64,000 bases of DNA. Source: Snodgrassella alvi. GTDB lineage: Bacteria > Pseudomonadota > Gammaproteobacteria > Burkholderiales > Neisseriaceae. A model generated the notes under the pieces. It was not told the DNA's origin and made no database searches. It saw nothing but the letters and a program-made list of their open reading frames with translations. Below, piece after piece: positions 14,525-57,251 of this stretch. Positions within the stretch are counted from its first letter, which is position 1. Each line of letters opens with the position of its first letter. The DNA lies in contig NZ_MEIK01000028.1 of assembly GCF_002777855.1 (NCBI RefSeq), positions 62,001 through 126,000 on the forward strand, written 5' to 3'. Position numbers and translations under genes: made by a program.

Positions 14525-14541
14525 TTGGTACAGAAATTGCA
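14525..14541 (+). promoter_or_regulatory. Sigma-54 (-24/-12) promoter of the rtc operon
   Basis: TTGGTACAGAAATTGCA matches the consensus TGGYAC-N5-TTGCA exactly, with GG at 14527-14528, GC at 14539-14540 and ten bases between them. Predicted transcription starts about 12 bases after the GC, near 14552. RtcR is encoded divergently next to it. Confidence 0.92.
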
Positions 14542-14551
14542 ATAAGAATGG

Positions 14552-14665: not shown

Positions 14666-14684
14666 ACTCCCTTTAACGGAGAAT

Positions 14685-14756
14685 ATTTGAATAGCTCACT
14701 GGTAGAGCAATTGGAACTGATCCAATTTGTAGCAGGTTCGATTCCTGTTTCAAATC
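14685..14756 (+). ncRNA. tRNA-like RNA in the rtc operon leader (anticodon position CTG, no U33)
   Basis: A full cloverleaf can be drawn. Acceptor ATTTGAA (14685-14691) pairs with TTCAAAT (14749-14755); D arm GCTC/GAGC has a GG-containing loop; anticodon stem is ATTGG/CCAAT; variable region TTGTA; T arm GCAGG/CCTGT has the canonical loop TTCGATT. The anticodon loop is AACTGAT, so the Gln-type CTG is present but the universal T33 is A, and A32 with T38 could extend the stem to leave a five-base loop. No CCA is encoded (CCT follows). It is therefore a tRNA mimic or a decayed tRNA-Gln rather than a decoding tRNA. It lies between the sigma-54 promoter and slipin, so it is probably induced with rtcB. 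Confidence 0.75.
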
Positions 14757-14848
14757 CTTGTCATAAAACTTTGTTGTAAAAAGCAATACCAGCCAGTAAA
14801 CAGCAATAAGCTAGTAGTTAAAGCTTAGGCACAGGAAAAACCGCTTAA

Positions 14849-14896
14849 CCGGACAAAATCAGCTTAAGATGATTTATCCGGATAAAAAAACCGGAT
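14849..14896 (+). promoter_or_regulatory. Mutually exclusive hairpins in the slipin leader
   Basis: TCCGG (14877-14881) can pair either upstream with CCGGA (14849-14853), reinforced by AAATCA/TGATTT (14856-14861 with 14870-14875), or downstream as ATCCGG/CCGGAT (14876-14881 with 14891-14896) across an A-rich loop. The two folds cannot coexist. This could control RNA processing or expression of slipin-rtcB relative to the upstream RNAs; the function is inferred. Confidence 0.45.
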
Positions 14897-15032
14897 AGCA
14901 GGCAAAAAATTAAAAAAGCATAAACAGGCAGTTTCTAGCTTATGCAGCTTAATCTTTCCCCTGTTATTTCGTTACTTAATCCGTTTGAATGTGTTCATTC
15001 TGTTTACTGGCTGCCTCAACAGGAGAATTAAA

Positions 15033-16610: not shown

Positions 16611-16668
16611 AAAACAAAAACACAAAATCATGCCATCAACTATGGCATGATAAAACCATGGAATAAAA

Positions 16669-20759: not shown

Positions 20760-21434
20760 TTAATTATCAATATTTATTAGCTTGTGAACATTTTTGATTG
20801 GAATATCCATAATTTTGGCAATTTCTTCGATTGGCACACCTTTAGTCAATAATGCATTAGCAGTTGCATGTTCAAGTTTTTCCCGACGTGTTTTTTCAGC
20901 TTTGGTCTTACTTCTTTCAACCGCCAGCTTTTCTTTCGCAATTTGCTTTTCTTCTTTTCGGATGCGCTCAATAACTTGAAAAGTCGGTACGTATTTCAGG
21001 CTTTGTTCCAGTTCCTCCATCAGTTTAATACTGCGAAAACTAATATAAGTTGTGGGGGTAATAATCAGATGGTCGACAAGGTCAATATTTAAAATGCGGC
21101 CAACTTGAATTAAACGGTCAGTGATATCCTTATCTGCCTCAGACGGCGTCAGCGAACCGGAAGGGTGATTATGTACCATAATAACGCGAGAAGCGTTTTT
21201 CATCACAGCTACGCGAAATACATTTATTGGCTCTATATTCACCGATTTATAGCTGCCCAGTGCAATTAGCTCAAGGTACAGAATATAACCTGCCTGATTC
21301 ATACCAATCATCCACAGATGTTCTTTTTCTCGGTCGATCTTGTTTTCACGCAATAACACACGCTGCATAATCTTGTACACATCATCCGTGCCTGCAATAT
21401 AGCGTTTGTCCTGCGAGGTCAGTTTAATATCCAT
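20760..21434 (-). CDS. RadC-like JAB-domain protein with coiled coil and C-terminal helix-turn-helix
   Basis: A 224-residue protein whose first 140 residues form the RadC/JAB (MPN+) metalloprotease fold, with the metal motif HNHPSGSLTPSEAD (about 98-111) and an upstream Glu in the strand before it. It lacks the helix-hairpin-helix lead of long RadC proteins. Residues about 150-195 are a Lys/Glu/Arg-rich coiled coil. The tail, KGVPIEEIAKIMDIP, has the spacing of a small helix-turn-helix. RadC-like proteins are frequent on mobile elements; the biochemical role is unresolved. It lies alone between two long noncoding AT-rich stretches. Confidence 0.75.
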   Translation of the reverse strand: MDIKLTSQDKRYIAGTDDVYKIMQRVLLRENKIDREKEHLWMIGMNQAGYILYLELIALGSYKSVNIEPINVFRVAVMKNASRVIMVHNHPSGSLTPSEADKDITDRLIQVGRILNIDLVDHLIITPTTYISFRSIKLMEELEQSLKYVPTFQVIERIRKEEKQIAKEKLAVERSKTKAEKTRREKLEHATANALLTKGVPIEEIAKIMDIPIKNVHKLINIDN

Positions 21435-41788: not shown

Positions 41789-42124
41789 ATGTCTGAAACA
41801 ACGCCGATTTGCCCGCAATGCGCTAGTGAACAAAATTACTTTGATGGCACATTTACTGTTTGCCTCGAATGCGGGCATGAATGGGATGCTAATAGTACAC
41901 CAGCCACACAGGAGCTGGATGTCAAAGACAGTAATGGCAATCCGTTAGCCAACGGTGATGATGTGATTCTGATTAAAGACCTCAAGCTCAAAGGTAGCAG
42001 CACCGTATTGAAAAAAGGTGCCAAAGCCAAAGGAATCCGTCTGGTTGAGGGTGACCACGAGATAGACTGTAAAGTAGATGGTATGAAAATTATGCTAAAA
42101 GCATGCTTTGTTAAAAAAGCCTGA
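41789..42124 (+). CDS. yjdM: YjdM (PhnA-type) zinc-ribbon protein
   Basis: A 111-residue protein with an N-terminal zinc ribbon, [25 protein letters not shown] (four Cys, about 9-32), followed by the conserved [25 protein letters not shown] region and the [17 protein letters not shown] end. It is nearly identical in layout to E. coli YjdM (formerly PhnA, 111 residues). Despite the old name it is not the phosphonoacetate hydrolase, and its function is not settled. A terminator follows. Confidence 0.93.
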
Positions 42125-42143
42125 TACTCTGAACGATAGAAAT

Positions 42144-42192
42144 ACCGCCAATCTAAGTGCCTAAACAAAGCATTGTAGACTGGCGGTTTTTA
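42144..42192. terminator. Intrinsic terminator between convergent yjdM and chuY
   Basis: ACCGCCAATCTA pairs with TAGACTGGCGGT (12 pairs, one mismatch), followed by five T residues on the plus side. Confidence 0.85.
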
Positions 42193-42194
42193 TA

Positions 42195-42245
42195 TGTGGA
42201 TCATTAAATTATCCACAAACTGTAATTACAGCTTAGTTATCCACA
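42195..42245. other. Cluster of DnaA-box sequences
   Basis: Two perfect TTATCCACA boxes in the same orientation (42209-42217 and 42237-42245) and one inverted near-match TGTGGATCA (42195-42203) lie within 51 bases at the end of a convergent gene pair. The last box overlaps the chuY stop region. It could be a DnaA-titrating or reactivating locus; single boxes elsewhere in coding sequence look incidental. Confidence 0.5.
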
Positions 42246-42880
42246 GTATCAAGCCCCGGATCAACTACAGCATACACACGGTTATCAAGCTTATCCGCAC
42301 TGATTCTTTGTAAAATTATCCGCGCTAACTCTGCTCTATGAATATAACCTTGTACCTGCTGCTGATAAAAACACTTGCCAGTGCCAGTAGCTTCACCTTG
42401 CGCCAGACCACCCGGGCGCAAAATCTCATAATTTAGCGTACTGGTTTGCAGCCACACCTCAGCCAGAGATTTTTCTCGTACTGCATGTCCGAAAGCTTTT
42501 TTCGCACGCTCTGACATTGTTGCCCAAGTATCACCACAGCCCAATGATGTCACCAGCAGCATCTGGCCGATACCACATAGCTCTGCCGTATCCATAATCA
42601 ACCGCTGTGCCAGATAGTGCGCGCCTGCCGAACCACCCAAGGTAGACACAATCACAGTATCCTGACCAGCTAGCGTGCACACTTCGCGCACACTGGATTC
42701 ATTCGTGGCATCTCCAACTATTGTTTCCACTCCTTGCTGTTGTAACTGGCGGGCAAAATCCTCATCCCGTACCAGCGCCACACAGCGCCAGCGACCGGTT
42801 TGTTTTAAAGCCTGCTGCACTACCTGATAAGCTGTGCCCATTTTTTGGCTTACCCCGAACAACAGTAATGTTTTCATCAT
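42233..42880 (-). CDS. chuY: ChuY-like NAD(P)-binding protein (anaerobilin reductase)
   Basis: A 215-residue Rossmann-fold protein of the NmrA/SDR-like group: LLLFGVSQKMGTAY at the start binds the dinucleotide, then ALVRDEDFARQL and VGDATNES. In E. coli O157 ChuY reduces anaerobilin, the product of ChuW. Here the start overlaps the chuX stop by four bases, in the order chuW-chuX-chuY on one strand, which makes this assignment stronger than sequence alone. The cofactor loop lacks a perfect GxxGxxG. Confidence 0.8.
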   Translation of the reverse strand: MMKTLLLFGVSQKMGTAYQVVQQALKQTGRWRCVALVRDEDFARQLQQQGVETIVGDATNESSVREVCTLAGQDTVIVSTLGGSAGAHYLAQRLIMDTAELCGIGQMLLVTSLGCGDTWATMSERAKKAFGHAVREKSLAEVWLQTSTLNYEILRPGGLAQGEATGTGKCFYQQQVQGYIHRAELARIILQRISADKLDNRVYAVVDPGLDTVDN

Positions 42881-43389
42881 TGCTCCTGTGTGGTGGCAAA
42901 ACGCTGTGCCAGACTGCGGAACTTAGTTAATTGCTCCGCTTTCAGCTGCCGCTGCTCATCTCGCCCCACAAAAATTTTAAACATTGCGTCACCATGCTGG
43001 TTGAGAAAAATAATCGACGCCGTAGCCATTTGCATAAAACTGCGTTCTACAAAAGCAATCTGCGCACAGTTTTCTGCGCGAATATGGCCGCCGAAACCTT
43101 GCTGATGTTGCAGATTAAAATAACCGGCACCATATTTACCTGCTGGTAGTAAACCCGAAAATTCCGCAATAATATCTGCTGTATGCACCAGAAAAGTAAT
43201 TTCTCCCCATGATTGCACATCCTGCCACACTGCATCAAAGTGGCTGCCAGCAGTTATCACCACATCCGGTATTGCCTTAATCACCTCAGCCAGTGTCACC
43301 TGATACTGTTGCGCAATCTGCTCCAGCGTCCCTTCTGGATTGCTGCGCATAAAAAGTTGCAGATTATTATTTTGTGAATGTTTTGTCAT
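42877..43389 (-). CDS. hutX: Cytoplasmic haem-utilisation carrier protein ChuX/HutX
   Basis: A 170-residue protein of the HutX/ChuX family, which binds haem in the cytoplasm and passes it to the degrading enzyme. Family features: EGTLEQIAQQYQVTLAEVIKAIP near the N-terminus, WGEITFLVHTADIIAEFSG in the middle, GYFNLQHQQGFGGHIR and FIFVGRDEQRQL-like end (here FKIFVGRDEQR). It lies between the radical-SAM gene (42-base gap) and chuY (four-base overlap). Confidence 0.9.
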   Translation of the reverse strand: MTKHSQNNNLQLFMRSNPEGTLEQIAQQYQVTLAEVIKAIPDVVITAGSHFDAVWQDVQSWGEITFLVHTADIIAEFSGLLPAGKYGAGYFNLQHQQGFGGHIRAENCAQIAFVERSFMQMATASIIFLNQHGDAMFKIFVGRDEQRQLKAEQLTKFRSLAQRFATTQEQ

Positions 43390-43431
43390 CGTTTTCCCTT
43401 AATCAAGTCAATTGCATTAAATGTATTTTTG

Positions 43432-44814
43432 TCACGACGTTGTGGCAAAACGCTGTATTGGTTTGCTGATGGGTTGGCGTTGCATCATTTTTTCCTGCCA
43501 CTCAAGATGTTCAGGATTATTTAAAGCCAGCAGTAACTGCTGCAATGCTTGCAACAGATTACTTGACCAAAAACGGCCAGACGGCGTTAAACGCGCGTAG
43601 CCCCTTTCATTGATCAGCAGACCAGCCCGCTGCCACTGCATAAGCAGCGGTTCCAACAATTCCGCCTGAGACGTTAGCGCGGGTAAATTCACCCGTCCCA
43701 CCTCAATCCCCGCCTGAAGCTGATGTAACCAGCTACCCAACAATGATTTATCCGTTAGCATCATCAATGGCTTTTTACCTGACTGCATCTGTGCATAGTA
43801 TTCAGCCAGATCACGATGCAGCATAAACGAATGCCCATTTAAACGCCCACCTGCGCCGGAGCCAAAAGCAAAAAAATCTGCTCCCTGCTTAATCAACAGG
43901 TTATATAAATTTCGTTCACGTGTGGTTTTTGCCCAATGGCTGTTATTTAATTGTATCCAGCCCTGCTGGCGTAAAAACGCCTCACCTTGTAAATAAAATT
44001 CACATTTAGCTGCCACGGCAGGCAATTCAAGCTGTCCTTTATCTACTCGTCTAGCCAAAGGCGTAGTTGGCAGCAAATTCAATGCATACAAATCTAACCC
44101 GTCCAGCGGCAAAGCGGCTGCCAGCTCCAGATCAGTCTGCCAGCTTTGCACAGTTTGCCCCGGCAAACCGAACATCAAATCACACACCAGTGCCACACAG
44201 TCTAGCCGCCCAATACGCTCAAATGTCTCAACAATCTGCTCACGGCAGGATAAACGTCCCAGCTTCTGCCGGATAGCTGTATCAAAAGTTTGTACACCGA
44301 TAGAAAACCGATTCGCACCAGCGGCAATATAACTTTCTGTACGTGCCTCATCAAAATCGGAAATTCGCCCCTCAATCGTAATTTCACAATCTGGCGCCAG
44401 TGGCAAAGATTGTCTGAGTAAGCTGATAACCCGCGCCAGTTGACCTGCGGGTAGAGCAGATGGCGTACCGCCCCCAAAATAAATAGCGTGAATCGGTGCA
44501 GACTGCATCACCGGATTATTCATTTCCAGAGCAATCTCAGCTAGTAAAGTCGTTATATACTTATCCGTATCAAATTTGCGCAGCAGATTCTGGTAAAAAC
44601 CACAAAACTGACAATGCGTTTCACAAAAAGGAATATGAATATAAATCAGCCTTTTATTGCCAGATATTGGCGATTGCTGCAATAAAGTCCATTGCTTTTC
44701 TATCTTTTCAGCAGCTAAAGGCAAACTGGCACGTAATGGCATCACCGCCCATCTATCCTGAAACGGCAGCCCAGTAGAGGCGGCGTAAAAACGGCTTAAA
44801 TCCAAAGAGTTCAT
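43432..44814 (-). CDS. hutW: Anaerobic haem-degrading radical SAM methyltransferase ChuW/HutW
   Basis: Opens the haem ring without oxygen, releasing iron and producing anaerobilin. The 460-residue protein is related to HemN. The iron-sulphur motif is IPFCETHCQFCGFY (three Cys in CxxxCxxC spacing, about 62-75), followed by IYFGGGTPSALPAGQLA and the NRFSIGVQTFD segment shared with coproporphyrinogen oxidases. The adjacent hutX and chuY, and a Fur-like site 33 bases upstream, identify it as the haem enzyme rather than HemN or HemW. It gives the cell a haem-iron route in low oxygen. Confidence 0.92.
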   Translation of the reverse strand: MNSLDLSRFYAASTGLPFQDRWAVMPLRASLPLAAEKIEKQWTLLQQSPISGNKRLIYIHIPFCETHCQFCGFYQNLLRKFDTDKYITTLLAEIALEMNNPVMQSAPIHAIYFGGGTPSALPAGQLARVISLLRQSLPLAPDCEITIEGRISDFDEARTESYIAAGANRFSIGVQTFDTAIRQKLGRLSCREQIVETFERIGRLDCVALVCDLMFGLPGQTVQSWQTDLELAAALPLDGLDLYALNLLPTTPLARRVDKGQLELPAVAAKCEFYLQGEAFLRQQGWIQLNNSHWAKTTRERNLYNLLIKQGADFFAFGSGAGGRLNGHSFMLHRDLAEYYAQMQSGKKPLMMLTDKSLLGSWLHQLQAGIEVGRVNLPALTSQAELLEPLLMQWQRAGLLINERGYARLTPSGRFWSSNLLQALQQLLLALNNPEHLEWQEKMMQRQPISKPIQRFATTS

Positions 44815-44846
44815 AACACAGACATCAAATCAAAGTGTCAGGATTA

Positions 44847-44865
44847 AATAATAATTATTCTCATA
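44847..44865. promoter_or_regulatory. Fur-box-like site upstream of the haem operon
   Basis: AATAATAATTATTCTCATA matches 12 of 19 Fur consensus positions and lies 33 bases upstream of the chuW/hutW start, where it would cover the promoter. Confidence 0.6.
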
Positions 44866-45513
44866 TGGCAATGGTTTTAAGCCAGCAAAATGCTACAACT
44901 TCCGCTTTATTGACACACATCAACTGACATAAAAATGTCAGCAAACTCATGAATGAAGTACAAAACGATAGCCAATGGGCTGGTGCAGACCTTTGCTTTA
45001 ACAACATCAAAAACTTCATTATTATTTAAGATTTATATTTTAGTAACAAATAAAAAGCAAATTAACTCTGCACCTATGCTCTAAGCGGGATTATTGAAAT
45101 ATTGCGAAGCCATCAGCATCTATCAGCTCAGGACGTTACAGAACAAAATGCTGGTTTGTTTCTAAAAATTCTCAATAGGCAAACAACAATAAAATGCTTT
45201 AGTTAGATGGTATTTGGTCTACTTTACTTGAATGCCTAATTAGCTGATCCCAACACTTTTACCAGTAAAGTGTGATTATCGAACAGGTTAACTGGGTATA
45301 TCCGAACGCTCCTGTAACTATCCACACTAAAACTCTTCAGCGAATTTTCAAACACTAATTTTGGTTTCACTTAATACCAATTGGGTTACATAAATATTAC
45401 CTTTAATATTACAATATAATAAAGCGTGTTAGATGTAGCAAATTGATTATTTGTGTTTTACTTAAAGCCTAATAAGAAAATGGTATTAATTAGATAGTCA
45501 CAAAATCTGATTC
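44866..45513. other. Intergenic region between haem operon and the defence-like module
   Basis: About 650 bases with no intact gene. Broken protein-like stretches around 45260-45340 might be remains of a mobile-element gene, but I could not identify one. One near-match to a DnaA box (CTATCCACA) occurs near 45317. Confidence 0.4.
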
Positions 45514-46926
45514 TTAATTGTTTGAAAAAATTTTTCCAAAATCTTTTATTGGAGACGATTCTTCTTTGTCCACAACAGGTTCTTTTAGATAATCCTGAAC
45601 AAGTTGAAAAATGTGATTTACTTTTTCTATTCGAGTGGTAATGAATCCAACTGGCAAGGGTACGTCATATGAATCCAAGTATGCATGATAGCAAACCACG
45701 GCAAATTGGTTCTCAAATACTATGATTTCAGTATTGTTATTTAAAAAACCTCCTTTAAAAGCATAGAAATTGTTTTTAAATTGTTTTTTATCCGACGGCA
45801 GCAAATTTTTTTTAGTATTTTTATATTTAGAATTTTTTATAGGAAGATACAGCCGAAAATTATATAAATGATATTCTTTTTTATTTTGATTACAAAATGC
45901 ATTATTGTAAAATAAATTAATTTGTTCCGAAAATTTTTCTTGAGCTCCCCAGTAAATATTCTCTACTCCCATCCAATAAAGTATTTTTGGCGATTGTGAA
46001 ATATTTTTTTTTAATTCATCCATCGAATTCTTCAAAAGCTTTTGAATATCATCTTGATGATAAGTTTGACCAACAAAATAAGTATCTTGGGGTGACTTTT
46101 GATTAATTTTTTCTAACATAAAAAAATTAAATTTTGGGGTAATAATTTTTAAGGTTTCAATATCATTTAATTTTTCCATGCTACTGATAATGTCTTGGAC
46201 ATTATTTTTATATTCATGTTTATATTTTTCTAATATATTTGTTACTTGATGAACTATTTTTTCACTATGATTTAGTGTATGAATATCATTTCGACCTAAT
46301 TGATTGCCAGTATCCTTATCCAAAGAAAAAAATTGGGTAAAACGAAAGTATTTATTATTAAATACTTCCACTCCATCTATTTTATACAAATGTCCATAAT
46401 CACTGTACAAAATTAATTTACCTTGATCCTTCAATTCATTAAACTGTTGTTGAAAATTACGTTCTGCATATTTTGACCTAAACGCAAATATTTCTGAAGA
46501 TATATTTAAACTAATAGCATTTTCATTATTGCTTAAATGTTTTTTGTCTATAAAATTTTCGTTTATTAGTTCCATATATAGATTGATTTCTTTTGTACGT
46601 AAATCAATTAATTTTGGTGCTAAAGTATTATGTTTAAATAGTTTTCTACCTGCTGTAGTTAAACCAATATTTCCATCGGAAAGATATTTAATCCATTTTT
46701 TATTCGCTAAATCATTTAATGCATTTTCAGTTTCATATTGAGTAAATGCAAAATATTTAGCAATTTCTTCAGGTCGGCAAGGACACAATATAAGTAGACG
46801 TAAAATATATTCCCGTACAAAAGACAATGCCTTTTCATCAGTGTATGAAAAAGAAATGCGAAACTTTGGCGCTATGATTATAAAATCTATTTGGTTATAA
46901 ACTAATTTATATTTTTGTTCTTCCAT
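45514..46926 (-). CDS. Winged-helix protein partnered with the NERD-kinase-helicase
   Basis: I do not recognise a named family for this 470-residue protein. Residues about 35-110 form a winged helix-turn-helix: LCPCRPEEIAKYFAFTQYETENALNDLA, then WIKYLSDGNIGLTTAGRKLF. The middle is helical and Lys/Asn-rich. The C-terminal third has a beta-rich stretch, FYAFKGGFLNNNTEIIVFENQ and AVVCYHAYLDS (about 380-420), whose rhythm recalls the second half of phospholipase-D-type nucleases. The HxK motif is missing, so this is weak. It begins 14 bases after the helicase stop on the same strand, so both are one operon. Base composition is very AT-rich, as in the helicase gene, suggesting transfer as a unit. 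Confidence 0.65.
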   Translation of the reverse strand: MEEQKYKLVYNQIDFIIIAPKFRISFSYTDEKALSFVREYILRLLILCPCRPEEIAKYFAFTQYETENALNDLANKKWIKYLSDGNIGLTTAGRKLFKHNTLAPKLIDLRTKEINLYMELINENFIDKKHLSNNENAISLNISSEIFAFRSKYAERNFQQQFNELKDQGKLILYSDYGHLYKIDGVEVFNNKYFRFTQFFSLDKDTGNQLGRNDIHTLNHSEKIVHQVTNILEKYKHEYKNNVQDIISSMEKLNDIETLKIITPKFNFFMLEKINQKSPQDTYFVGQTYHQDDIQKLLKNSMDELKKNISQSPKILYWMGVENIYWGAQEKFSEQINLFYNNAFCNQNKKEYHLYNFRLYLPIKNSKYKNTKKNLLPSDKKQFKNNFYAFKGGFLNNNTEIIVFENQFAVVCYHAYLDSYDVPLPVGFITTRIEKVNHIFQLVQDYLKEPVVDKEESSPIKDFGKIFSNN

Positions 46927-46940
46927 AATTTTCTCGCTAA

Positions 46941-49900
46941 TTACTGTTTATTTTTTTCAAATTTGATGATTGAATAAGCCAATTTATCTTCATTCGATTC
47001 CATCATTGCCAATACCTTGCCCAGAGGTAAATCAGCATTTTTACCTCGCCACATAGCTGTTGCACCTACAATTATTAATCTATCCATTGCACGAGAAAGA
47101 GCAACATTAATACGATTAGGTGAATTTAAAAAACCTGGTTGAAGTATTTTGTTATTGCGAGTGATAGACAACATAATAATGCGATTTTCTTTGCCTTGAT
47201 AACTATCTACAGTATCGATTTTAATCAGTTGCCTGAATTGTTCATCCCATTTTGTTTCGTTAAATTTTTTTCGTATCAAATTTTTTTGTTCACTATACAT
47301 ACAAATAATACCGATTGCAGCTTCTCCTTTTTTTAAACAATTCAGTACAATATCACTTTGTTTGAAATCTGTACTCGTTTCCAAATATCGAAGATGCTCT
47401 ATGATTATATCGGCTTCTGCCTCATTAAACAGTCTGCCATGCTCGTCCTTTTTTTGCTCGTTCGAATTAGGTAAATTACTTGTATCCAACCAAGTTACAC
47501 AGCTTGAAAAATGTTGATGAATTAATCTATAAATATTAGGTACATCTTTGATTAATCTACCATTTTCTAATTCTCCTGCATAAAAACAATTCGATACTAA
47601 AGTGCCTATTGCCGGTGCCATTCGATACTGTGTTTTTAGGGTAGCGCATGTATGCTGCCCATATGGGGAATCAAATACTCGTTGAAAATCACTGCTTAAA
47701 AACTGTTGTTCGAATTCTTCTTTACTTTTTCTATAATCATAATGTTCCATCAAAGCTTTTTTATGCTCTTCTGAATACAATGGAGGTAGCTGCTTATGAT
47801 CACCTACCAGTAAAATGCGCTTAGCCGATTGCATGGCTATAGCTAGCTCACTTGACATTGAGCGAGCTGCTTCATCAATAATCACCCAATCGTATATATT
47901 TTGATCAATTTCGATATTGTCATGACCTATGCCTACACATGTGCCTATAACCAGTTGACGCGAACGGGCTAGAAATTCATCATAATTAACTCCTTCGTTT
48001 GATAGGGCTTGCTGCATTGAATCGGTCAACTCAATTAAATTGTCAGCTTGAGCGGATTGTTTAGGCGAAATTCTGTAGTAATGGTCAAGTATTTCGATTA
48101 AACTGATTAAAATTGTATCAATTTTATTTATATCAAGTAAAATTTTATCGGTATAAATATTTTTATTTTTTCCAATGAAGGCTTCGAGAGAGAAACAAAT
48201 ATATTCATAAATTTGATTACAAAGATTCGAAGACTCAGCTATATATTCTTGGTTTTCAGCTACATCATATTGCTCTTCTTTAGGAATAGGTTTTTTCAAA
48301 CGTTCTAGGCGTTTAATTTGTTTACCAATGTTCAACTGTAATTCTGTTCTCAATTTTAAATAATCTTCAGATAATCCAAGTATTTGTCCAATTTCACAGA
48401 TGCGGTTTATCTGTGTGGCTTGAAGGATTTCTCGTTGAGCGCCAACTAGATTCAAAGAAAATACATCTTGTAAATCAGTAGAAACAGCGGTTTCACGGTT
48501 ACTAAATCGAACAATACTGATATCTTCTTTTAAACGTTGACAATGTTTGCGAATTCGTTCGGCTGCGGTATTAACTGCTTCATGAGACTGGCTGACCAAT
48601 AGAATTTTTTGTACATTTTGTTGAGTAAAAAGAAAATGTACAAATGCGGCGATAAACTCAGTTTTTCCGGTTCCGGGCGGACCTTGTAATAAGGATAAAG
48701 GGCCATTTTGAATTAATTTGGCAAATGCATAACGCTGTGCACTATTTAGGGTAACTATTTCACCATATCCGTTATCACGGTCATAGAGTCGGAATTCTTC
48801 TTCTCCTATTTTGATGTCGTAATTTTTACATGGAAGGGTACAATTGGTCTCAAAATATTCTGGTAATTGACTGATGATACTTTCTCCTGCCAAAATCCGC
48901 TCCACTGCTTTTTTTCTCCGTCTCAGCGAGGAAAAAGTCTGCCAATTTTGCAAGTACATAATGGGATTTGTTTTTAAGCAATTGATAAATTTAGGTTTTT
49001 CTTTAAAACAAAGATAATATGATGTACAAAATTGTAAATCCAATTGACCCATTGTACGTTCTTTATTTTTATCATTTTTTACTAAAACAAATATTTTATC
49101 ATCTGCACGAAACTGATCTAAAATTTGTCTATTATCTCCAGATTCGTAAAAAACAAACCATTTGTTATTATTTTCATCATGTCTAATTTTTGGAGAATTT
49201 TGATTCTCCTTATAATCTATTACAGCTTTAACATAAGGTAATGAATCTGTTTCTTTACTAATTATTGCTGTCCATAGATTACGTACGCTGAGCTGATGAG
49301 TTAAATTAGTTATGGGGAAGGAGATTTCTGATAGATTATCAATTGAATGTTGTAAGTTTGTTGAATCATTTGTACATGGTGGGGTTAAATTCAATTGCCT
49401 TTGTTCAATATTTGTTTGTTTAAAAATGGATATTTTATGGTTAAATTCAGGCCAATTTAGCAATTTCTTCGTTAGTTCAGTCAAATCAAAATTTTGATTT
49501 CCAGATATTTCTAAACTGAAAGGAATACTTAAATTGCTTTTTTTCTTTACCCAAAAGGGTATTTGCACTTTTGTATTTGATATTTTGGCTGAATCAAAAC
49601 ATTGAGTATTTAAATTGTATACAGTATGAAATAAACCTCCGATACCATAAAAATCAATGTTGATTTTATTTTTTATATCTTTTTTAAGAGATAAAACAAT
49701 AAATAATTTATTTTCATCTGGAAAAATTTTTATATCTTGGCTGTCACTATTTTGTCCTTTAATATTAATAGAATTCTTTTGTGTTGGCTGTAATGCTTTT
49801 TTAAATCTTTCCAGTGATAAAAATCCAGTTTCTCTATCTGAGCATTCAAGCTTGATTACCTTAGCTATTTCAGGAAATTTAGAAGATTCCTCTCCCCAAC

Positions 49901-52022
49901 TTATATCTAGCAATTCACAGGCCATTCGCATAACGGCAAAATTATCTCGTTCTTGCTCACTGGCTTCTTCAGCGGTAGGAGGGGAGTAATAATAATTGAG
50001 ATTACTTTTACCATTAGAAGTGTAATCTATTAAATCAAGTAAGTACACTTTAGCATTGTTATTATCATCGAGAATTTTTATGTTTTCTGGATGTAAATCG
50101 CCATGATATAAATTCAAACTATGCAATTGTTCTATAGTTTGTATTAATTTGTAAATTATTTTATATTTATTTTTTACATCTAGATTTTTACTTTGGATTT
50201 CTTTCCATGTATAACCTTCGATATATTCGCTTACTATAAATAAACTACTAGATCTATCCGCAATACCAAATTCTCGAATTGTGGGTAAGTAATCAGGAGC
50301 AAGATCTTTAAGTTGAGATACTTGCTTTAAAAAATTCAATAAAATTTGTGCTACAGATTTATTGTTTTTATAATGGATATTTAGCCATGCTTTTACGACT
50401 TGCCCATTAGATCGATAAACTTCTTTATCATTAGTAAATTTTAAATATTCTGTGTCTGTATCTTTTGAATATTCAATATTATGGTTATAAGGATGTTTGT
50501 AAGAATCTAATTGGTTTTCATCAAATTGAAAAATGTATGATTGTTGTTGTGTTCTTTCATTAAAAGCATCGAAAAAGGCTTTTCCATCTATATAAGGCTG
50601 TTCTGATAAGGCTTTCCTAAATATATCCGCATACCATTCGTTATTGGTTTTGATTTCTTCTGCAAATTTTTTAATGCTATCTGGCAAAATGCTTTTTGAA
50701 TTAATAATGTGCCATGCTAATACTGTAGCAGAGCGTATATCCTGAATAAAAGGAGTAGGTTTGCTTATGGGAAAGTATTCAAATGCTAAATCTTTTACCC
50801 CTGATACTGATAAAATTTCTCTGATATTTCCTATAGTACCTTTTTCAGGGTAATAAGCTGAAATAAAATTGGAAAAAGTAATTTTTTTTGTGTTTGCTAT
50901 CCATATACTATGATAATTGATGTCACGATGAGCAATACCTATTTTATGCAAATCCGCTAATTTGCTTAGCATTAAAAAAACTAATTCCAGTCTTTGTTCT
51001 TTACTCAAATTTTTAGCATTTTGTTCAATAAAGATATTGAAACTTTTATTTGAAGGCAAATAAGTGAATATGTCTGTATATTCTGAAGTAATATTATCTT
51101 TTGAAGGTGGTGATTTGTGATTGAGACAATTATTAAATAAGTCTTCATTAGCAATTTTAATGTGTTCTAAAACTTCATATTCGCGTTTTATGATGCTATA
51201 TCTGCCATCTGATGTTTTAGCAAAATCATCGTTAATCCGATTAAAATCCCAACGCCGAATTAATGCTAAATCTGTTTTAATATTTTCTGATTGTGCCAAG
51301 TATTCTTTATAAATCTCCTTTGGATGAACAAAAAGGGCATCTTTTTCGGCTTTATATCCGTTGATGCGGTAGAATTGAGACGAAATTCTGTTTTCTTTAA
51401 AAAATTCTTCAGCTAAATCAGCTGGGTTTATATAAGTTGCATCATTTCTAATATTGAATTTTTTTCTAAATTTTTCTTCGTCTTTTAGTTCTAAAAAATA
51501 TTGTAGTGACATGACATGGTTCTTTTCATCATCTGGTAAATTTATAAAAGTAGCTTTACCAGTCATGACCACTAAATATTCAATGTAAACACTTGAATAT
51601 TTGTTTTGTGATTTTTGATTAATTTGTCGCAGTTTTTCTTTTATAAGATAAAATTTATTTCTTGTTACTGCTACAGGCGATTTACCTCTGTCTTCCTCAT
51701 TCTGATACCAATGGCCTTTTGAACAACTTATTTTACCATTCCAATTTTTTAATTCGATAATAAGTATATTACAATGAGTAAATATTAATAAATCGTATTC
51801 ACCTTCATTTTTGTTAACAGCAAGTCTAAATCCAGCATAACCTTTCCAAGATAACTCAGAATAGGTTTGTTGTTTTAAAGATATAAAATCTTTAAGTCTA
51901 GTCTTTGAAGATGATTTTTTTTCCTCTTTTATAAAATTGTTTTCTATGGTTGAAATGGCTTTTATTTCATGTTGTTGTAAGCCTTCATTACATAATTTAA
52001 TCCATTTTTTTTGATTTATCAT
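46941..52022 (-). CDS. NERD nuclease - pseudokinase - protein kinase - SF1 helicase fusion protein
   Basis: A 1693-residue multidomain protein. Residues about 55-165 are a NERD nuclease-like domain with Asp77 and Glu90-Leu-Lys92 in IIELKNW. Residues about 240-480 look like a kinase whose loop is HRDINYHS (365-372) with the metal-binding Asn lost and no DFG, hence a pseudokinase. Residues about 525-740 are a second kinase with Lys544 in VVKAW, HGDLHPEN (640-647) and Asp663 in LLDLID, probably active. Residues about 1030-1690 are an SF1 Upf1/DNA2-type helicase: GPPGTGK (1114-1120), DEAA (1383-1386), GDHKQLPP (1407-1414), QYRM (1465-1468), DSYQGKE (1606-1612), NVALSRAMDR (1639-1648). Kinase-helicase fusions occur in Mokosh-type antiphage systems; a similar role is inferred. 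Confidence 0.85.
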   Translation of the reverse strand: MINQKKWIKLCNEGLQQHEIKAISTIENNFIKEEKKSSSKTRLKDFISLKQQTYSELSWKGYAGFRLAVNKNEGEYDLLIFTHCNILIIELKNWNGKISCSKGHWYQNEEDRGKSPVAVTRNKFYLIKEKLRQINQKSQNKYSSVYIEYLVVMTGKATFINLPDDEKNHVMSLQYFLELKDEEKFRKKFNIRNDATYINPADLAEEFFKENRISSQFYRINGYKAEKDALFVHPKEIYKEYLAQSENIKTDLALIRRWDFNRINDDFAKTSDGRYSIIKREYEVLEHIKIANEDLFNNCLNHKSPPSKDNITSEYTDIFTYLPSNKSFNIFIEQNAKNLSKEQRLELVFLMLSKLADLHKIGIAHRDINYHSIWIANTKKITFSNFISAYYPEKGTIGNIREILSVSGVKDLAFEYFPISKPTPFIQDIRSATVLAWHIINSKSILPDSIKKFAEEIKTNNEWYADIFRKALSEQPYIDGKAFFDAFNERTQQQSYIFQFDENQLDSYKHPYNHNIEYSKDTDTEYLKFTNDKEVYRSNGQVVKAWLNIHYKNNKSVAQILLNFLKQVSQLKDLAPDYLPTIREFGIADRSSSLFIVSEYIEGYTWKEIQSKNLDVKNKYKIIYKLIQTIEQLHSLNLYHGDLHPENIKILDDNNNAKVYLLDLIDYTSNGKSNLNYYYSPPTAEEASEQERDNFAVMRMACELLDISWGEESSKFPEIAKVIKLECSDRETGFLSLERFKKALQPTQKNSINIKGQNSDSQDIKIFPDENKLFIVLSLKKDIKNKINIDFYGIGGLFHTVYNLNTQCFDSAKISNTKVQIPFWVKKKSNLSIPFSLEISGNQNFDLTELTKKLLNWPEFNHKISIFKQTNIEQRQLNLTPPCTNDSTNLQHSIDNLSEISFPITNLTHQLSVRNLWTAIISKETDSLPYVKAVIDYKENQNSPKIRHDENNNKWFVFYESGDNRQILDQFRADDKIFVLVKNDKNKERTMGQLDLQFCTSYYLCFKEKPKFINCLKTNPIMYLQNWQTFSSLRRRKKAVERILAGESIISQLPEYFETNCTLPCKNYDIKIGEEEFRLYDRDNGYGEIVTLNSAQRYAFAKLIQNGPLSLLQGPPGTGKTEFIAAFVHFLFTQQNVQKILLVSQSHEAVNTAAERIRKHCQRLKEDISIVRFSNRETAVSTDLQDVFSLNLVGAQREILQATQINRICEIGQILGLSEDYLKLRTELQLNIGKQIKRLERLKKPIPKEEQYDVAENQEYIAESSNLCNQIYEYICFSLEAFIGKNKNIYTDKILLDINKIDTILISLIEILDHYYRISPKQSAQADNLIELTDSMQQALSNEGVNYDEFLARSRQLVIGTCVGIGHDNIEIDQNIYDWVIIDEAARSMSSELAIAMQSAKRILLVGDHKQLPPLYSEEHKKALMEHYDYRKSKEEFEQQFLSSDFQRVFDSPYGQHTCATLKTQYRMAPAIGTLVSNCFYAGELENGRLIKDVPNIYRLIHQHFSSCVTWLDTSNLPNSNEQKKDEHGRLFNEAEADIIIEHLRYLETSTDFKQSDIVLNCLKKGEAAIGIICMYSEQKNLIRKKFNETKWDEQFRQLIKIDTVDSYQGKENRIIMLSITRNNKILQPGFLNSPNRINVALSRAMDRLIIVGATAMWRGKNADLPLGKVLAMMESNEDKLAYSIIKFEKNKQ

Positions 52023-52214
52023 TACTTTTCTCTACTTAGCTTTATGACTTGTTCTTTATCATTATATAACTCTTGTATTAAATTTTATATATATTCAAAA
52101 TGTTAAATTAAAATGCTTATAAATTTTTTATTATTAAATTTAGATTAATCCATTAATTTTTATTAGCGTCGCTATGATATTTGGAATTTAATAAAAAATG
52201 ATAAGTTAGAAAAA

Positions 52215-52243
52215 AGATTGAACAGCAAGATGCCGTTCAATCT
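52215..52243 (-). terminator. Intrinsic terminator of glmS
   Basis: AGATTGAAC pairs with GTTCAATCT around an 11-base loop. On the minus strand it is followed by six T residues, 30 bases after the glmS stop. The gap on to the helicase start is about 190 AT-rich bases. Confidence 0.88.
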
Positions 52244-52271
52244 ATCTTAAAATTATAATTTTAAATAAATA

Positions 52272-54113
52272 TTACTCCACCGTCACCGATTTTGCCAGAT
52301 TACGCGGTTTATCCACATCCGTGCCGCGTGCCAGTGCGGTGTGATACGCCAGTAGCTGTACAGGTATGGTGTGAACAATTGGCGACAGTACGCCCATATG
52401 GCGCGGGGTGCGGATGACGTGTACGCCTTCGCCGGCGGTAAATTCGCTGTCTAAATCGGTAAAGACAAACAGTTCGCCGCCGCGTGCAGCGACTTCCTGC
52501 ATATTGGCTTTGACTTTTTCCAGCAAGCTGTCGTTGGGTGCGATAACCACTACCGGCATATTCTGGTCTACCAGTGCCAACGGCCCGTGTTTGAGTTCGC
52601 CGGCAGGATAAGCCTCTGCATGAATATAGGTGATTTCTTTCAGTTTCAGTGCACCTTCAAGGGCGATGGGGTAGTGGATGCCGCGGCCGAGAAACAGGGC
52701 GTTGTTTTTGGCGGCAAACTGGTTTGCCCAGCCGGCGATTTGCGGTTCCAGATTAAGTACATGCTGGACGCTGCCCGGTAGCAAGCGCAATTCGCTGGTG
52801 TATTGCTCTTCTTCCTCAGGGGTAACCAGTCCACGCATTTTGCCAAGGGTAACCGCCAAACCAAACAAGGCCACTAGCTGAGTGGTGAAGGCTTTAGTGG
52901 AAGCAACGCCGATTTCGGCACCGGCACGGGTATACAGTACCAGCTCGCTTTCGCGCGGCAGCGCAGATTCCATTACGTTGCAGATGGACAGGCTGTGCTG
53001 CATCCCCAGTGATTGGGCATATTTAAGCGCCTCCATGGTGTCGAGGGTTTCGCCAGACTGGGAAATAGTTATCACTAATTGTTCGGGGTCAGCGATCACT
53101 TTGCGGTAGCGGTATTCGCTGGCAATTTCCACATCGGTGGGTATCTGGGCAATGGCTTCGAGCCAGTAGCGTGCGGTTAGGGCGGCATAGTAGGAGGTGC
53201 CGCAGGCAAGAATTTTGATACTGCGAATGCGCTCAAAGATGGCGGCAGCATTAATGCCGAAGTTGGCCGGTTCGAAGCCACCAACTAAAAATACTTCTGC
53301 GGTGTCGGTGATAGCTTTGGGCTGTTCGTGGATTTCTTTCTGCATAAAGTGGCTGTACAGGCCAAGTTCGAGCGAAGCGAGTGACAGTTCGGACATTTTG
53401 ATTTCGCGCTCTACCGGTTGCTGGTGTTTGTCGAGCAGCAGGTCGATGCCATCTGTGGATAACTGTACGATATCGCCATCTTCCAAGAATACCACGTGGC
53501 GTGTATAGGCAATTACAGCGGAGACATCGGAGGCGATAAAGCTTTCGTTTTCGCCCAGTGCCACTAACAGCGGGCAGCCCATGCGTGCGGCTACCAGTTT
53601 TTCGGGATTATCGCGCGCGATAACGCCAATGGCGTAAGCGCCCTGAAAACGCTGGCAGGCATGCTGTACTGCTTGAAAAAGGTTGCCATTGCTGCTGTGG
53701 GTGTATTCGTAATGAATGCTGTGGGCAATCACTTCTGTATCAGTTTGTGAGGTGAACTGATAGCTCAATGCTTCGAGGCGGTTGCGTTCGCTTTCAAAGT
53801 TTTCGATGATGCCGTTATGGACGATGGCTATCAGATTATTGGAAATATGGGGATGGGCATTGGGTTCGGTAACACCGCCGTGGGTTGCCCATCGGGTATG
53901 GCCGATGCCAAGGCTGCCTTTTAGACCTGCGGCTTGTGCGGCTTCTTCCATCAGTTTAACGCGGCCGACGCGACGTACGCGCTCTATGCCATTGGGTGTC
54001 CAGACGGCAATACCAGAGGAGTCATAACCGCGATATTCCAGTCGTTCCAGACCGCTGGTTAAAAATTCTACTACGTTATTCTGAGCGCGAATGGCGCCAA
54101 CTATGCCACACAT
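52272..54113 (-). CDS. glmS: Glutamine-fructose-6-phosphate aminotransferase (isomerising)
   Basis: Makes glucosamine-6-phosphate, the entry to cell-wall amino sugars. The 613-residue product (E. coli 609) starts MCGIVGAI, where the Cys after Met is the glutaminase nucleophile. It has [11 protein letters not shown] and HNGIIENF in the amidotransferase half, two SIS sugar-isomerase domains ([36 protein letters not shown]) and the C-terminal [13 protein letters not shown]. It is monocistronic with a terminator. glmU, the next enzyme in UDP-GlcNAc synthesis, lies 3.7 kb away on the same strand. Confidence 0.98.
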
Positions 54114-54511
54114 GTTTTATCCTTTTACTACAGGCTGGTTGCTGGTGTGGCTGCGCGTGTGAAGGGTAAGACTGGCCGCGGCTGTTGTGTATGAGAGATG
54201 AATGCAGCGGTCGTCTATTTGGTGCGCAGTGCCATGCCTGTCTATGCTGTTTTCAATTGCTTAAGAAGACGATTGTAATGGAAATAGGCGTTTTGCACAG
54301 TAATGTTTGTTTGTGCAGGCAGCTGAGTGTTTGTTTATTTGGTAGAGATGTGGTTGGGTTGTGTTTATGATTTAGAAAAATTTATTTTTATTTATCAATA
54401 ATGTTGATTTTTTATACGCTGGTCGACGGCGGTTGTATTTACATGCGGTATGTTGCTGGTATTGATTTATGCTGTCACTTTGCTAATCAATTTTGACTGA
54501 ATCTGGCTTGT
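54114..54511. other. Intergenic region upstream of glmS
   Basis: 398 bases between feoC and glmS. It should carry the glmS promoter. I see no riboswitch, ribozyme core or convincing hairpin. A 61-codon frame at 54185-54370 has no coding character. Confidence 0.4.
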
Positions 54512-54793
54512 TTAGATGCTGTGTTGTGCGGAGGAGATGGGGATGGTTTTGCGGGGGCTGCTGACGACCTGATAAATTTTTTTGGCACCATCGGGACAGG
54601 CGAAGCAGTTGCTGCATTGGTTTGGACTACATCCGGGCTGAGTAAGACTAATTTGGCGTATGGTTCCTTTACGCAGCCAAAAGCTGAGTATTTGTTCCAT
54701 AGCACTTTCCTGTACTTGGAAATGGCGTGCTAAATCTTGCAGGCTGGCCTGTCCGATGCTGATAAGGTAATCGCGAATGGCGGTGATGAGCAT
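54512..54793 (-). CDS. feoC: FeoC-like iron-sulphur winged-helix protein
   Basis: A 93-residue protein, third in feoA-feoB-feoC order. The N-terminal 60 residues are a small winged helix (AIRDYLISIGQASLQDLARHF, then FWLRKGTIRQI). The wing is a cysteine cluster, CSPNQCSNCFACPDG (about 55-69, four Cys), as in FeoC proteins that bind an iron-sulphur centre. FeoC is thought to regulate or protect the FeoB transporter. It is separated from feoB by 133 bases containing a long hairpin. Confidence 0.88.
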   Translation of the reverse strand: MLITAIRDYLISIGQASLQDLARHFQVQESAMEQILSFWLRKGTIRQISLTQPGCSPNQCSNCFACPDGAKKIYQVVSSPRKTIPISSAQHSI

Positions 54794-54844
54794 TTTTTGT
54801 CTATCCTGTGCTGTTATGGTTCCTGTTGGTTAGGTATCTGAATA

Positions 54845-54886
54845 CAAACAGATAGTGACGATAGGGCAGATATCACTATCTGTTTG
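54845..54886. other. Long perfect hairpin between feoB and feoC
   Basis: CAAACAGATAGTGA (54845-54858) pairs perfectly with TCACTATCTGTTTG (54873-54886), 14 pairs with a 14-base loop. There is no T run in the feo direction, so it is unlikely to be a simple intrinsic terminator and may set the feoB:feoC ratio or mark RNA processing. Confidence 0.75.
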
Positions 54887-54926
54887 AGTAAATCTGTTTT
54901 AGCGGTTGGTAAAAATGTGCATCTGG

Positions 54927-57251
54927 TCAGTGGCAGCAGCTGCCTTTGCTATGTGGACAGGTTTTCATGGCTATCTGACAGGTCTGGCGCCGGCTACCGA
55001 TGATTTTCATGGCACAGATTACGAAGATCAGTAAAATAGCAACACCACCAATCCAGTAGGAGGCACTGGCCGAACGGCTGAGCTGGTGATACTGGTAGTA
55101 GACGGTGGCACAGCTCCAGCCAGTGAGGAATGTCCAGCCAGCAACAAATAGCATCCAGCGCCAGCCGGCTTCGCGGTAGATGGTACCAAGCGCAGCGGCA
55201 CAGGGGGTGTAGAGCAAAATGAATATCAGATATGCCATGGCAGCGGCGCTGCCACCAAAGGAACTTTCAAGTTTAGTTATGGTACGGCTGCTGATGTCCA
55301 TGTCCTGCTGGACGCTGGCTGTATTTTCGTCAAGGGCGCTGAAGCCAAGCGGGTCGAGAAATGAGCCGGCCATTTCGCTAAGGTTGGCTGGAATGGTTTT
55401 CAAAGCTTTGATGATGCCGGCTTGCAGGTTGAATTCTTCCTCGCCACCGTCTTCTTCTGCTTTCATTGAGTAGAGGGAATTGAGAGTGGCGATAACGGCC
55501 TCTTTGGCAAAGATGCCGGTGAAGATACCAACGGTGGCTGGCCAGTTTTGTTCGCTGATACCCATTGGGGTAAACACGGGGGTGATTTTTTGGCTGGCTA
55601 CAGATAGTACAGACTGGCTGCTATCGGGGTGGCCAAATGAACCGTCGCTACCAAGGGAGTTGAGCAAGCTAAGAATGGTAACCATCAGCACGATGGCCTG
55701 TCCGGCACGGAAAATAAACCCTTTTAAGCGTGACCATGTGAGGTAAAGCATGCCACGTAGTGTTGGTAGGCGATAGGCGGGCATTTCCATGATAAATGGT
55801 GTGGTATCACCCGGTAGCAAAGTGTGTTTGAGTATCAGGCCGGTAAAGATGGCGACACCGATACCGAGTAAATACAAGATAAATACGACACTGGAAGCGT
55901 TATTAGGAAAGAAGATAACGGCAAATAAGGTATAGACGGGTAATCTGGCGCCACAAGACATAAACGGAATCATGCTGATGGACATCAGACGGTCACGTGC
56001 GCAGTCTAGGGTGCGTGTGCCCATAATGGCTGGCACACCACAGCCGAAACCAACGAGCATGGGCACGAACGCTTTACCCGGTAAACCGATGGCACGCATG
56101 CCTCTGTCTACAACCATGGCTGCTCGTGCCAGATAGCCGGAATCCTCGAGAAACGACAGGCACAGAAACATGGCGGCAATGACAGGGATAAAGGTAGCTA
56201 CAGTTTGGATGCCGCTACCGATGCCGTTAGCCAGTATAGCTATCAGCCATTCTGGTGAGCCAATATGGGTAAGTAAGGTAGAAAAGCCATCAACAAATAT
56301 TGTGCCAAAAAGAACATCGAAAAAGTCGATGAATACGGAACCGAATTTTACTGCCAGCATAAACATAAGGTACATGACAAACAGAAAAAACGGTATGCCG
56401 GTATATCGACCTAGGGTAAAACGGTCGATTTTGTCGGATAGTGACTGGTTTGCTTCACGTGGTTTTTCGATAACCGTACGGCTTAGCTGGTCAATGGCAT
56501 CGTAACGAGAGCTAGCCAGTGCGATGTCGATTTCATAGTTACACCAACTAGATAGTTCGTCACGACATTGCTGAACAATGTGCTCTTCGTCATTGCTCAG
56601 AGAAATAGAACTTTGTTTTAGCAACAGTTCAATTAATGACCATTGATCGATTTGGTTTACTACACTGTCTGCCGGCAGTTGTGATAGATAGTGGCGGATG
56701 ATATCACTTTGTTTTTTTCCGAGGGTGTCCAGTTGCGGGTCAGCAGCTACAGGCTGGCTGAAAGCTTTGCTGATTGCTTGCTGCAATTGTATTAAACCCA
56801 TCTTTTTCGCTGCAGATATGGCTATGACAGGGCAGCCAAGCTGATGGGTAAGGGTACTGATATTGATGTTTTCGCCCATGTTTTGCAGGGCATCCATCAT
56901 GTTGAGTACGACCAGCATTGGCTTTTTCAGATCAAGCAGCTGAAAGGTAAGGTACAGGCTGCGTTGCAGGTTGGTAGCATCGATTATATTGATAATTAGG
57001 GTGTCAGGTTCGTTGAGCACGAATTCGCGCGCGATCATTTCGTCCTGTGAGGCTGCCATGTCGAGGTTTTCGATGGCATAAGTACCGGGTAGGTCGACGA
57101 TTTCTACTGACTGCCCATTTATCTGGGTACTGCCAATTTTGCGCTCTACAGTAACACCTGGCCAGTTGCCTACTTGCTGGCGAGAGCCGGTAAGGGCGTT
57201 AAATAATGTGCTTTTGCCGCTGTTGGGGTTGCCGATTAATGCTATTTTCAT
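54927..57251 (-). CDS. feoB: Ferrous iron transporter FeoB
   Basis: Inner-membrane Fe(II) transporter of 774 residues with a cytoplasmic G-protein domain: G1 GNPNSGKST (7-15), the conserved NWPGVTVER segment (33-41), G3 DLPGTY (about 58-63) and G4 NMMD. The membrane part has two gate repeats (LVGFGCGVPAIMGTRT, and GIFAKEAVIATLNSLY). The C-terminus ends in a Cys/His-rich tail CPHSKGSCCH, seen in some FeoB proteins. Its start codon shares one base with the feoA stop (TAATG), giving tight coupling. Confidence 0.97.
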   Translation of the reverse strand: MKIALIGNPNSGKSTLFNALTGSRQQVGNWPGVTVERKIGSTQINGQSVEIVDLPGTYAIENLDMAASQDEMIAREFVLNEPDTLIINIIDATNLQRSLYLTFQLLDLKKPMLVVLNMMDALQNMGENINISTLTHQLGCPVIAISAAKKMGLIQLQQAISKAFSQPVAADPQLDTLGKKQSDIIRHYLSQLPADSVVNQIDQWSLIELLLKQSSISLSNDEEHIVQQCRDELSSWCNYEIDIALASSRYDAIDQLSRTVIEKPREANQSLSDKIDRFTLGRYTGIPFFLFVMYLMFMLAVKFGSVFIDFFDVLFGTIFVDGFSTLLTHIGSPEWLIAILANGIGSGIQTVATFIPVIAAMFLCLSFLEDSGYLARAAMVVDRGMRAIGLPGKAFVPMLVGFGCGVPAIMGTRTLDCARDRLMSISMIPFMSCGARLPVYTLFAVIFFPNNASSVVFILYLLGIGVAIFTGLILKHTLLPGDTTPFIMEMPAYRLPTLRGMLYLTWSRLKGFIFRAGQAIVLMVTILSLLNSLGSDGSFGHPDSSQSVLSVASQKITPVFTPMGISEQNWPATVGIFTGIFAKEAVIATLNSLYSMKAEEDGGEEEFNLQAGIIKALKTIPANLSEMAGSFLDPLGFSALDENTASVQQDMDISSRTITKLESSFGGSAAAMAYLIFILLYTPCAAALGTIYREAGWRWMLFVAGWTFLTGWSCATVYYQYHQLSRSASASYWIGGVAILLIFVICAMKIIGSRRQTCQIAMKTCPHSKGSCCH

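What the first reader, a model, noticed from the sequence alone, without database searches (positions are those of the whole stretch)
45514..52022. Two-gene NERD-pseudokinase-kinase-helicase module, a candidate antiphage system
The 1693-residue protein joins a NERD nuclease-like domain, a dead kinase, an apparently active kinase and an SF1 helicase, and is followed 14 bases later by an unrecognised winged-helix protein. Both genes are much more AT-rich than their neighbours. Published Mokosh type I systems combine a kinase-helicase protein with a PLD-nuclease partner; here the lead nuclease is NERD and the partner has no clear PLD motif. It may be a Mokosh relative or a separate class.
Basis: partly seen in the sequence, partly recalled or inferred. 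Interest (0 to 1): 0.87.

Follow-up and report, generated by a model that had tools for sequence, protein, structure and literature searches.

The report
NERD-type Mokosh antiphage gene pair
The two AT-rich genes are a complete copy of Mokosh type I, a bacterial antiphage system already in public libraries, here in a bee-gut Snodgrassella beside glmS; the only new point is a hint that this branch cuts with a different nuclease from its sister branch.

Summary
In detail: two AT-rich minus-strand genes, 1693 and 470 codons, 14 bases apart. They are not an unassigned module. The "NERD instead of PLD" contrast is not peculiar to this locus: NERD is already listed for Mokosh type I (PMC10952713), and all 34 full-length relatives share NERD-dead kinase-kinase-helicase (one exception at kinase 2). 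MkoB is a MarR-like winged helix plus a predicted PLD fold whose HKD catalytic residues are absent in all 22 aligned sequences. The sister type I variant shows the reverse: two intact HKD motifs and no NERD in its three strong examples. I infer that the nuclease job moved from MkoB to MkoA's NERD domain in this branch; the sister sample is small and nothing is tested biochemically. The genome is a Snodgrassella; a same-species genome lacks the system. The pair sits directly after glmS, the attTn7 spot, where another Snodgrassella carries tnsA, tnsC and tnsD. Some relatives lie beside Gabija, JetA and restriction genes. Verdict: new member of a known kind.

The parts
46941..52022 (-). mkoA: NERD nuclease-like domain, dead kinase, apparently active kinase, SF1 (COG1112/UPF1-like) helicase, 1693 aa
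   Evidence: (PDLC03921 MkoA, 1629 bits, residues 8-1690)
45514..46926 (-). mkoB: N-terminal MarR-like winged helix (about 31-105) and C-terminal PLD-like domain without HKD residues (about 268-448), 470 aa
   Evidence: (PDLC03923 MkoB, 2.2e-72, residues 1-461)
51561..51860 (-). NERD domain (residues 55-154 of MkoA); E75, D77, E90, K92 invariant in 34 sequences
50031..50279 (-). core of the second, apparently active kinase (residues 582-664 of MkoA)
47061..48749 (-). SF1 helicase (residues 1092-1654 of MkoA)
45583..46125 (-). PLD-like domain of MkoB (residues 268-448); the HxK position reads NTE, with E400 invariant in 22 sequences
52215..52243 (-). terminator-like stem-loop between glmS and mkoA (13 pairs, then a T run), so mkoA probably has its own promoter
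   Evidence: consensus match only
52272..54113 (-). glmS (not part of the system); homology to Snodgrassella genomes without the system stops at or within about 25 bases of its stop codon

Best explanation
A complete chromosomal Mokosh type I system of the NERD-bearing variant, gained horizontally at the spot directly downstream of glmS in a Snodgrassella. Likely working (inferred): the MkoA helicase binds phage nucleic acid, probably RNA or an RNA/DNA intermediate, with MkoB as a DNA- or RNA-binding partner through its winged helix and catalytically dead, TrmB-like PLD domain. The dead/active kinase pair gates the complex by phosphorylation. Once activated, the NERD domain of MkoA, and not the PLD domain of MkoB, cuts nucleic acid and stops the phage or the cell. 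Shown here: family membership, gene pairing, domain content, conservation of NERD, kinase-2 and helicase residues, loss of the HKD residues, patchy presence in the genus. Not shown: nucleic acid target, trigger, role of phosphorylation, antiphage activity of this copy. Confidence about 0.95 for the identity and about 0.45 for NERD as the cutting domain.
For: Full-length PADLOC matches of both genes, the same in kind as those of E. coli and other copies. mkoB lies directly behind mkoA in every locus not cut by a contig end. NERD E19, E75, D77, E90, K92, W94 invariant in 34 MkoA, helicase Walker residues invariant, kinase-2 residues intact in 33/34. The MkoB C-terminal model matches PLD-superfamily structures almost exclusively (TrmBL2 Z 9.3, NucT Z 9.3, TrmB, Zucchini), while the HxK lysine position is Glu in 22/22. 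The sister variant has two HxK...SxN motifs in MkoB and no NERD in MkoA in three of three strong examples. Neighbouring defence genes. Absent from a 97%-identical same-species genome. The same NERD-dead kinase-active kinase arrangement in PglW and DndF is read as a nuclease plus kinase module in PMC12839542 and PMC10853773.
Against: No functional data for this copy. NERD nuclease activity is unproven in this family; in PglW it is called putative (PMC4365076). The HKD assignment in MkoB rests on motif spacing in predicted models built from 22 sequences (mean pLDDT 76 and 83). A fourth, weaker member of the sister variant (L118) has altered HKD motifs and also no NERD hit, so the exchange is not perfect. 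Acinetobacter MkoA has lost the kinase-2 catalytic residues, so kinase activity may not be essential everywhere.
Confidence: 0.6

Rival explanations
1. Ordinary Mokosh type I mechanism: MkoB is still the effector, a PLD-family nuclease with an altered active site, and NERD only binds nucleic acid or supports it.
For: Published descriptions give type I a PLD nuclease encoded apart from the helicase (PMC11672841; PMC10952713). The MkoB C-terminal domain has a PLD fold with its own invariant polar residues E400, Y413, H414.
Against: The catalytic His position is Asn in 19/22 and the catalytic Lys position is Glu in 22/22; the nearest folds include TrmB and TrmBL2, non-catalytic PLD-like DNA or sugar binders; NERD catalytic residues are invariant.
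Confidence: 0.2
2. The kinase is the main effector: activation phosphorylates host proteins and halts growth, with helicase and NERD serving for sensing.
For: Kinase-2 catalytic residues conserved in 33/34; PglW, with the same N-terminal module, autophosphorylates (PMC4365076).
Against: The Acinetobacter MkoA lacks the catalytic loop residues of kinase 2 yet keeps NERD, helicase and MkoB; the sister variant's kinase lacks the HRD aspartate in three of three.
Confidence: 0.12
3. A separate class related to BREX type 2 PglW, not Mokosh.
For: MkoA residues 59-381 match PglW (3e-26), and the NERD-dead kinase-active kinase order is the same as in PglW (PMC12839542).
Against: No PglX, PglZ, BrxC or BrxD recognisable beside it; MkoA matches the MkoA model end to end at 1629 bits and PglW only N-terminally; MkoB partner present.
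Confidence: 0.03
4. An inactive relic or a housekeeping pair.
For: Some relatives have broken mkoA frames (L026, L033, L034, L035, L037).
Against: Both genes here are open and keep every conserved residue; presence is patchy within the genus, 2 of 14 genomes.
Confidence: 0.04

Closest known systems
Mokosh type I, NERD-bearing variant (PADLOC MkoA PDLC03921 + MkoB PDLC03923), e.g. E. coli BE2-5 and ATCC 98082
   Same: Both proteins along full length, gene order, NERD-dead kinase-kinase-helicase, winged helix plus HKD-less PLD-like partner
   Different: 39% (MkoA) and 28% (MkoB) identity to E. coli; chromosomal, after glmS, in Snodgrassella
Mokosh pair in Snodgrassella alvi WF3-3
   Same: 68%/66% identical pair, also directly after glmS
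   Different: Keeps the GtrII gene behind the pair, which the window lacks
Mokosh type I, PLD-bearing variant (PDLC03920 + PDLC03922)
   Same: Helicase protein with a kinase-like domain, winged-helix MkoB, two adjacent genes
   Different: No NERD; kinase lacks the HRD aspartate; MkoB about 590-640 aa with two HKD motifs
PglW (BREX type 2), DndF and MAD6
   Same: NERD plus dead and active kinase module (PMC12839542, PMC10853773)
   Different: No SF1 helicase fusion and no MkoB; they belong to multi-gene systems
Mokosh type II (MkoC)
   Same: Related helicase core (3e-29)
   Different: Single gene carrying its own PLD domain (PMC11672841)

Membership tests
Mokosh type I | Helicase of the COG1112/UPF1-like SF1 group in one protein (MkoA) | tested here: met
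   AAA_11/AAA_12, UPF1/Nam7 best in PDB, MkoA model full length
Mokosh type I | Serine/threonine kinase domain in MkoA | tested here: met
   Pkinase 1.9e-09, residues 582-660; K544, HGD, N647, D663 kept
Mokosh type I | NERD domain, listed for Mokosh type I in PMC10952713 | tested here: met
   NERD 6.4e-12; also in E. coli MkoA
Mokosh type I | Separate adjacent mkoB gene | tested here: met
   14 bases downstream, MkoB PDLC03923 2.2e-72 full length
Mokosh type I | PLD-family domain in the partner (fold) | tested here: met
   Predicted C-terminal domain matches PLD-superfamily structures; no Pfam PLD match, as in the E. coli partner. Fold only, by prediction
Mokosh type I | PLD catalytic HKD residues in the partner, as implied by the words 'PLD nuclease' | tested here: not met
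   No HxK at the expected place in 22 aligned MkoB including this one. True of the whole PDLC03923 group sampled, so it qualifies the mechanism; the family assignment rests on the curated models
Mokosh type I | Protection against phage | not testable with these tools
   Needs an experiment
BREX type 2 / Pgl | PglW with PglX, PglZ, BrxC and BrxD neighbours | tested here: not met
   None recognisable among the window ORFs (read by eye); PglW similarity only N-terminal
Mokosh type II | Helicase and PLD in one protein (MkoC) | tested here: not met
   Two separate genes; MkoC only matches the helicase part

The most novel reading that the evidence does not exclude
Mokosh type I consists of two branches with exchanged nucleases: in the branch seen here the PLD partner has become a dead, TrmB-like nucleic acid binder and the NERD domain of MkoA does the cutting, with an active kinase as the switch; in the other branch the PLD partner cuts and NERD is absent.
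Probability: 0.4. Interest if true: 0.5.

Novelty: new member of a known kind. Interest (0 to 1): 0.3.

Why it matters
It settles an apparently new module as a known system and places it at the attTn7 spot of a bee-gut symbiont genus. The comparison of the two type I variants gives a testable claim: published accounts call Mokosh a helicase plus PLD nuclease, yet the NERD variant, which may be present in several percent of complete E. coli genomes, seems to lack a working PLD site. If NERD is the nuclease, descriptions and mechanistic work on Mokosh type I need to treat the two variants apart.

Tried and rejected
Separate class or BREX relative: rejected by the end-to-end MkoA match and MkoB presence. 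PLD domain of MkoB by Pfam: no match in five MkoB; resolved by folding the C-terminal part alone. Profile comparison of the MkoB C-terminus with the weak sister-variant MkoB of L090: nothing found (hhalign probability 0.4%), uninformative with a single sequence on one side. Viral contigs: no MkoB relatives; phage records: two short Acinetobacter contigs only. Remnant of GtrII between mkoB and the next gene: none found. Rfam families: none in 42000-55000. Promoter-like sites no more frequent than in shuffles; repeats marking insertion ends: only AT-rich chance-like pairs. The glmS-linked 1256-aa AT-rich gene of two other Snodgrassella: no Pfam or PADLOC match. The original Mokosh paper (10.1016/j.chom.2022.09.017) is not held, so statements about it rest on citing papers.
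Full report
What is there. Two minus-strand genes, 46941-52022 (1693 aa) and 45514-46926 (470 aa), 14 bases apart. GC is 30.6% and 26.2%, against 53% for glmS on one side and 47% for the next gene on the other. Pfam finds NERD (55-154), a kinase (582-660) and an SF1 helicase (1092-1654) in the large protein, and nothing above threshold in the small one. The closest solved helicases are UPF1/Nam7.

What it is. PADLOC matches the large protein to MkoA (PDLC03921, E=0, 1629 bits, residues 8-1690 against 3-1602 of 1607) and the small one to MkoB (PDLC03923, 2.2e-72, residues 1-461 against 1-446 of 454). E. coli copies give the same assignment. PMC10952713 lists NERD under Mokosh type I, and PMC11672841 describes type I as helicase and PLD nuclease in separate genes with a serine-threonine kinase domain.

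Spread. Relatives of both genes occur on plasmids, chiefly Acinetobacter, in Neisseria and one other Snodgrassella, and in 31 loci of the species-level genome collection, from Pasteurellaceae to Pseudomonas. A segment of the gene has a blastn match in 310 of 5426 complete E. coli genomes; only part of the gene aligns at DNA level and two of these loci were read in detail, both with the complete pair, so the number is an estimate. In all 14 loci, and in 29 of 31 loci, mkoB lies directly behind mkoA; the other two start at a contig end inside mkoB. Five relatives have a broken mkoA frame, which may be decay or sequencing error.

Conserved residues. In 34 full-length MkoA the NERD residues E19, E75, D77, E90, K92 and W94 are invariant, which fits the PD-(D/E)xK pattern. 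The first kinase has Ser at the DFG aspartate in all 34 and lacks the catalytic-loop asparagine, so the dead kinase is a family trait. The second keeps K544, HGDxxxxN and D663 in 33; the Acinetobacter copy L017 reads IGRICHGS. Helicase Walker residues are invariant.

MkoB. A model from 22 sequences (mean pLDDT 76) has a MarR-like winged helix at 31-105 (VIA Z about 12, rmsd 2.5-3, about 75 residues). The C-terminal 221 residues folded alone (pLDDT 83, pTM 0.85) match PLD-superfamily structures almost exclusively: TrmBL2 (Z 9.3, rmsd 3.4, 136 residues), NucT (Z 9.3, rmsd 3.2, 130 residues), TrmB, PLD3, Nuc, Zucchini, R.NgoAVII. Identities are about 10%, so this is fold and not close kinship. 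By motif spacing, HxKxxxxD corresponds to residues 398-405, which read N-T-E...E here; position 400 (Lys in active PLDs) is Glu in all 22 and position 398 is Asn in 19. The partner thus has the PLD fold expected for Mokosh but not its catalytic residues. This residue mapping is inference from predicted structure.

The sister variant. PADLOC's second MkoA/MkoB pair of models (PDLC03920/PDLC03922) was sought in about 1400 genomes; three strong examples were found and read (L114, L115, L117). Their MkoB (about 590-640 aa) has two HxK...SxN motifs each and PLDc_2 by Pfam in the two scanned. Their MkoA has no NERD by BLAST, nor by Pfam in the two scanned, and its kinase reads HRS, HRN or HGR at the HRD motif. 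A fourth, weaker member (L090/L118) has altered motifs although Pfam still finds PLDc_2. So NERD-intact MkoA goes with an HKD-less MkoB (34 and 22 sequences), and HKD-intact MkoB goes with a NERD-less MkoA (three). I read this as an exchange of the cutting domain. I found no paper saying so, but the original description is not in the library.

Neighbourhood. Among 96 flanking proteins of relatives, GajB matched in three and a JetA lay near one, with 171 PADLOC families hit in all at E up to 1e-15. Many of these families are redundant models and no control regions were scanned, so this is qualitative. An E. coli copy lies between restriction genes and an integrase; another lies near a TnsD-family Tn7-like gene and TIR-domain genes.

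The site. The pair starts 250 bases behind the glmS stop. A 97%-identical same-species genome (G101) has no copy anywhere and holds a GtrII glucosyltransferase gene in a 2.1-kb interval instead of 7.3 kb. S. alvi WF3-3 holds Mokosh followed by that GtrII gene, so the pair probably entered between glmS and gtrII, and gtrII was later lost here. Directly behind glmS in other members: tnsA, tnsC and tnsD plus a tnsB by position (G012), a 1256-aa AT-rich gene (G010, G003), large GC-rich genes (G002, G008). This is the attTn7 spot (PMC2918618, abstract). No Tn7 genes accompany the window's pair, so how it arrived is open.

How it probably works. The helicase recognises phage nucleic acid, MkoB binds with it, the kinase pair regulates, and NERD cuts. 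PglW and DndF carry the same NERD-dead kinase-active kinase module, interpreted as nuclease plus kinase, and PglW has shown autokinase activity. For MkoA this is by analogy only.

Verdict. A complete member of a known system. What remains interesting is the possible exchange of nucleases between the two type I variants, which simple mutants can test.

Noticed in passing
window 18427-19878 (+), with RadC-like gene 20760-21434 (-): A 483-aa protein in a 22-23% GC island matches the PADLOC candidate family PDC-M36A (4e-23, N-terminal half); a second, unrelated defence candidate in the window, with a RadC-like protein nearby.
   Followed up: partly
L080:494-4264 (-) and L082:811-4593 (+): A 1256-1260-aa AT-rich gene (30-31% GC) lies directly downstream of glmS in two other Snodgrassella genomes. 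The L080 copy has no Pfam or PADLOC match; possible unknown defence or mobile-element gene at the same hotspot.
   Followed up: partly
L089:454-6427 (+): A Tn7-like gene set (tnsA, tnsC, tnsD/tniQ by Pfam, tnsB by position) directly downstream of glmS in a Snodgrassella, followed by genes that look phage-like.
   Followed up: partly
L017:2951-7999 (+): Acinetobacter MkoA has lost the catalytic-loop residues of the second kinase (IGRICHGS for HGDxHPxN), so both kinase domains look dead while NERD, helicase and mkoB are kept.
   Followed up: partly
L014:8734-14917: On an E. coli plasmid the Mokosh pair lies close to a TnsD-family Tn7-like gene and two TIR-domain genes, which may point to Tn7-like carriage.
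   Followed up: no
window 12751-17889: An RtcR-like sigma-54 activator (12751-14364), an SPFH/slipin-like protein (14985-16610) and RtcB (16669-17889) flank a tRNA-Gln; looks like an RNA repair cluster with an unusual slipin-like member. Names from reading the sequence, not searched.
   Followed up: no
L026, L033, L034, L035, L037: In several relatives the mkoA frame is broken while mkoB is open; decay or sequencing error not resolved.
   Followed up: no
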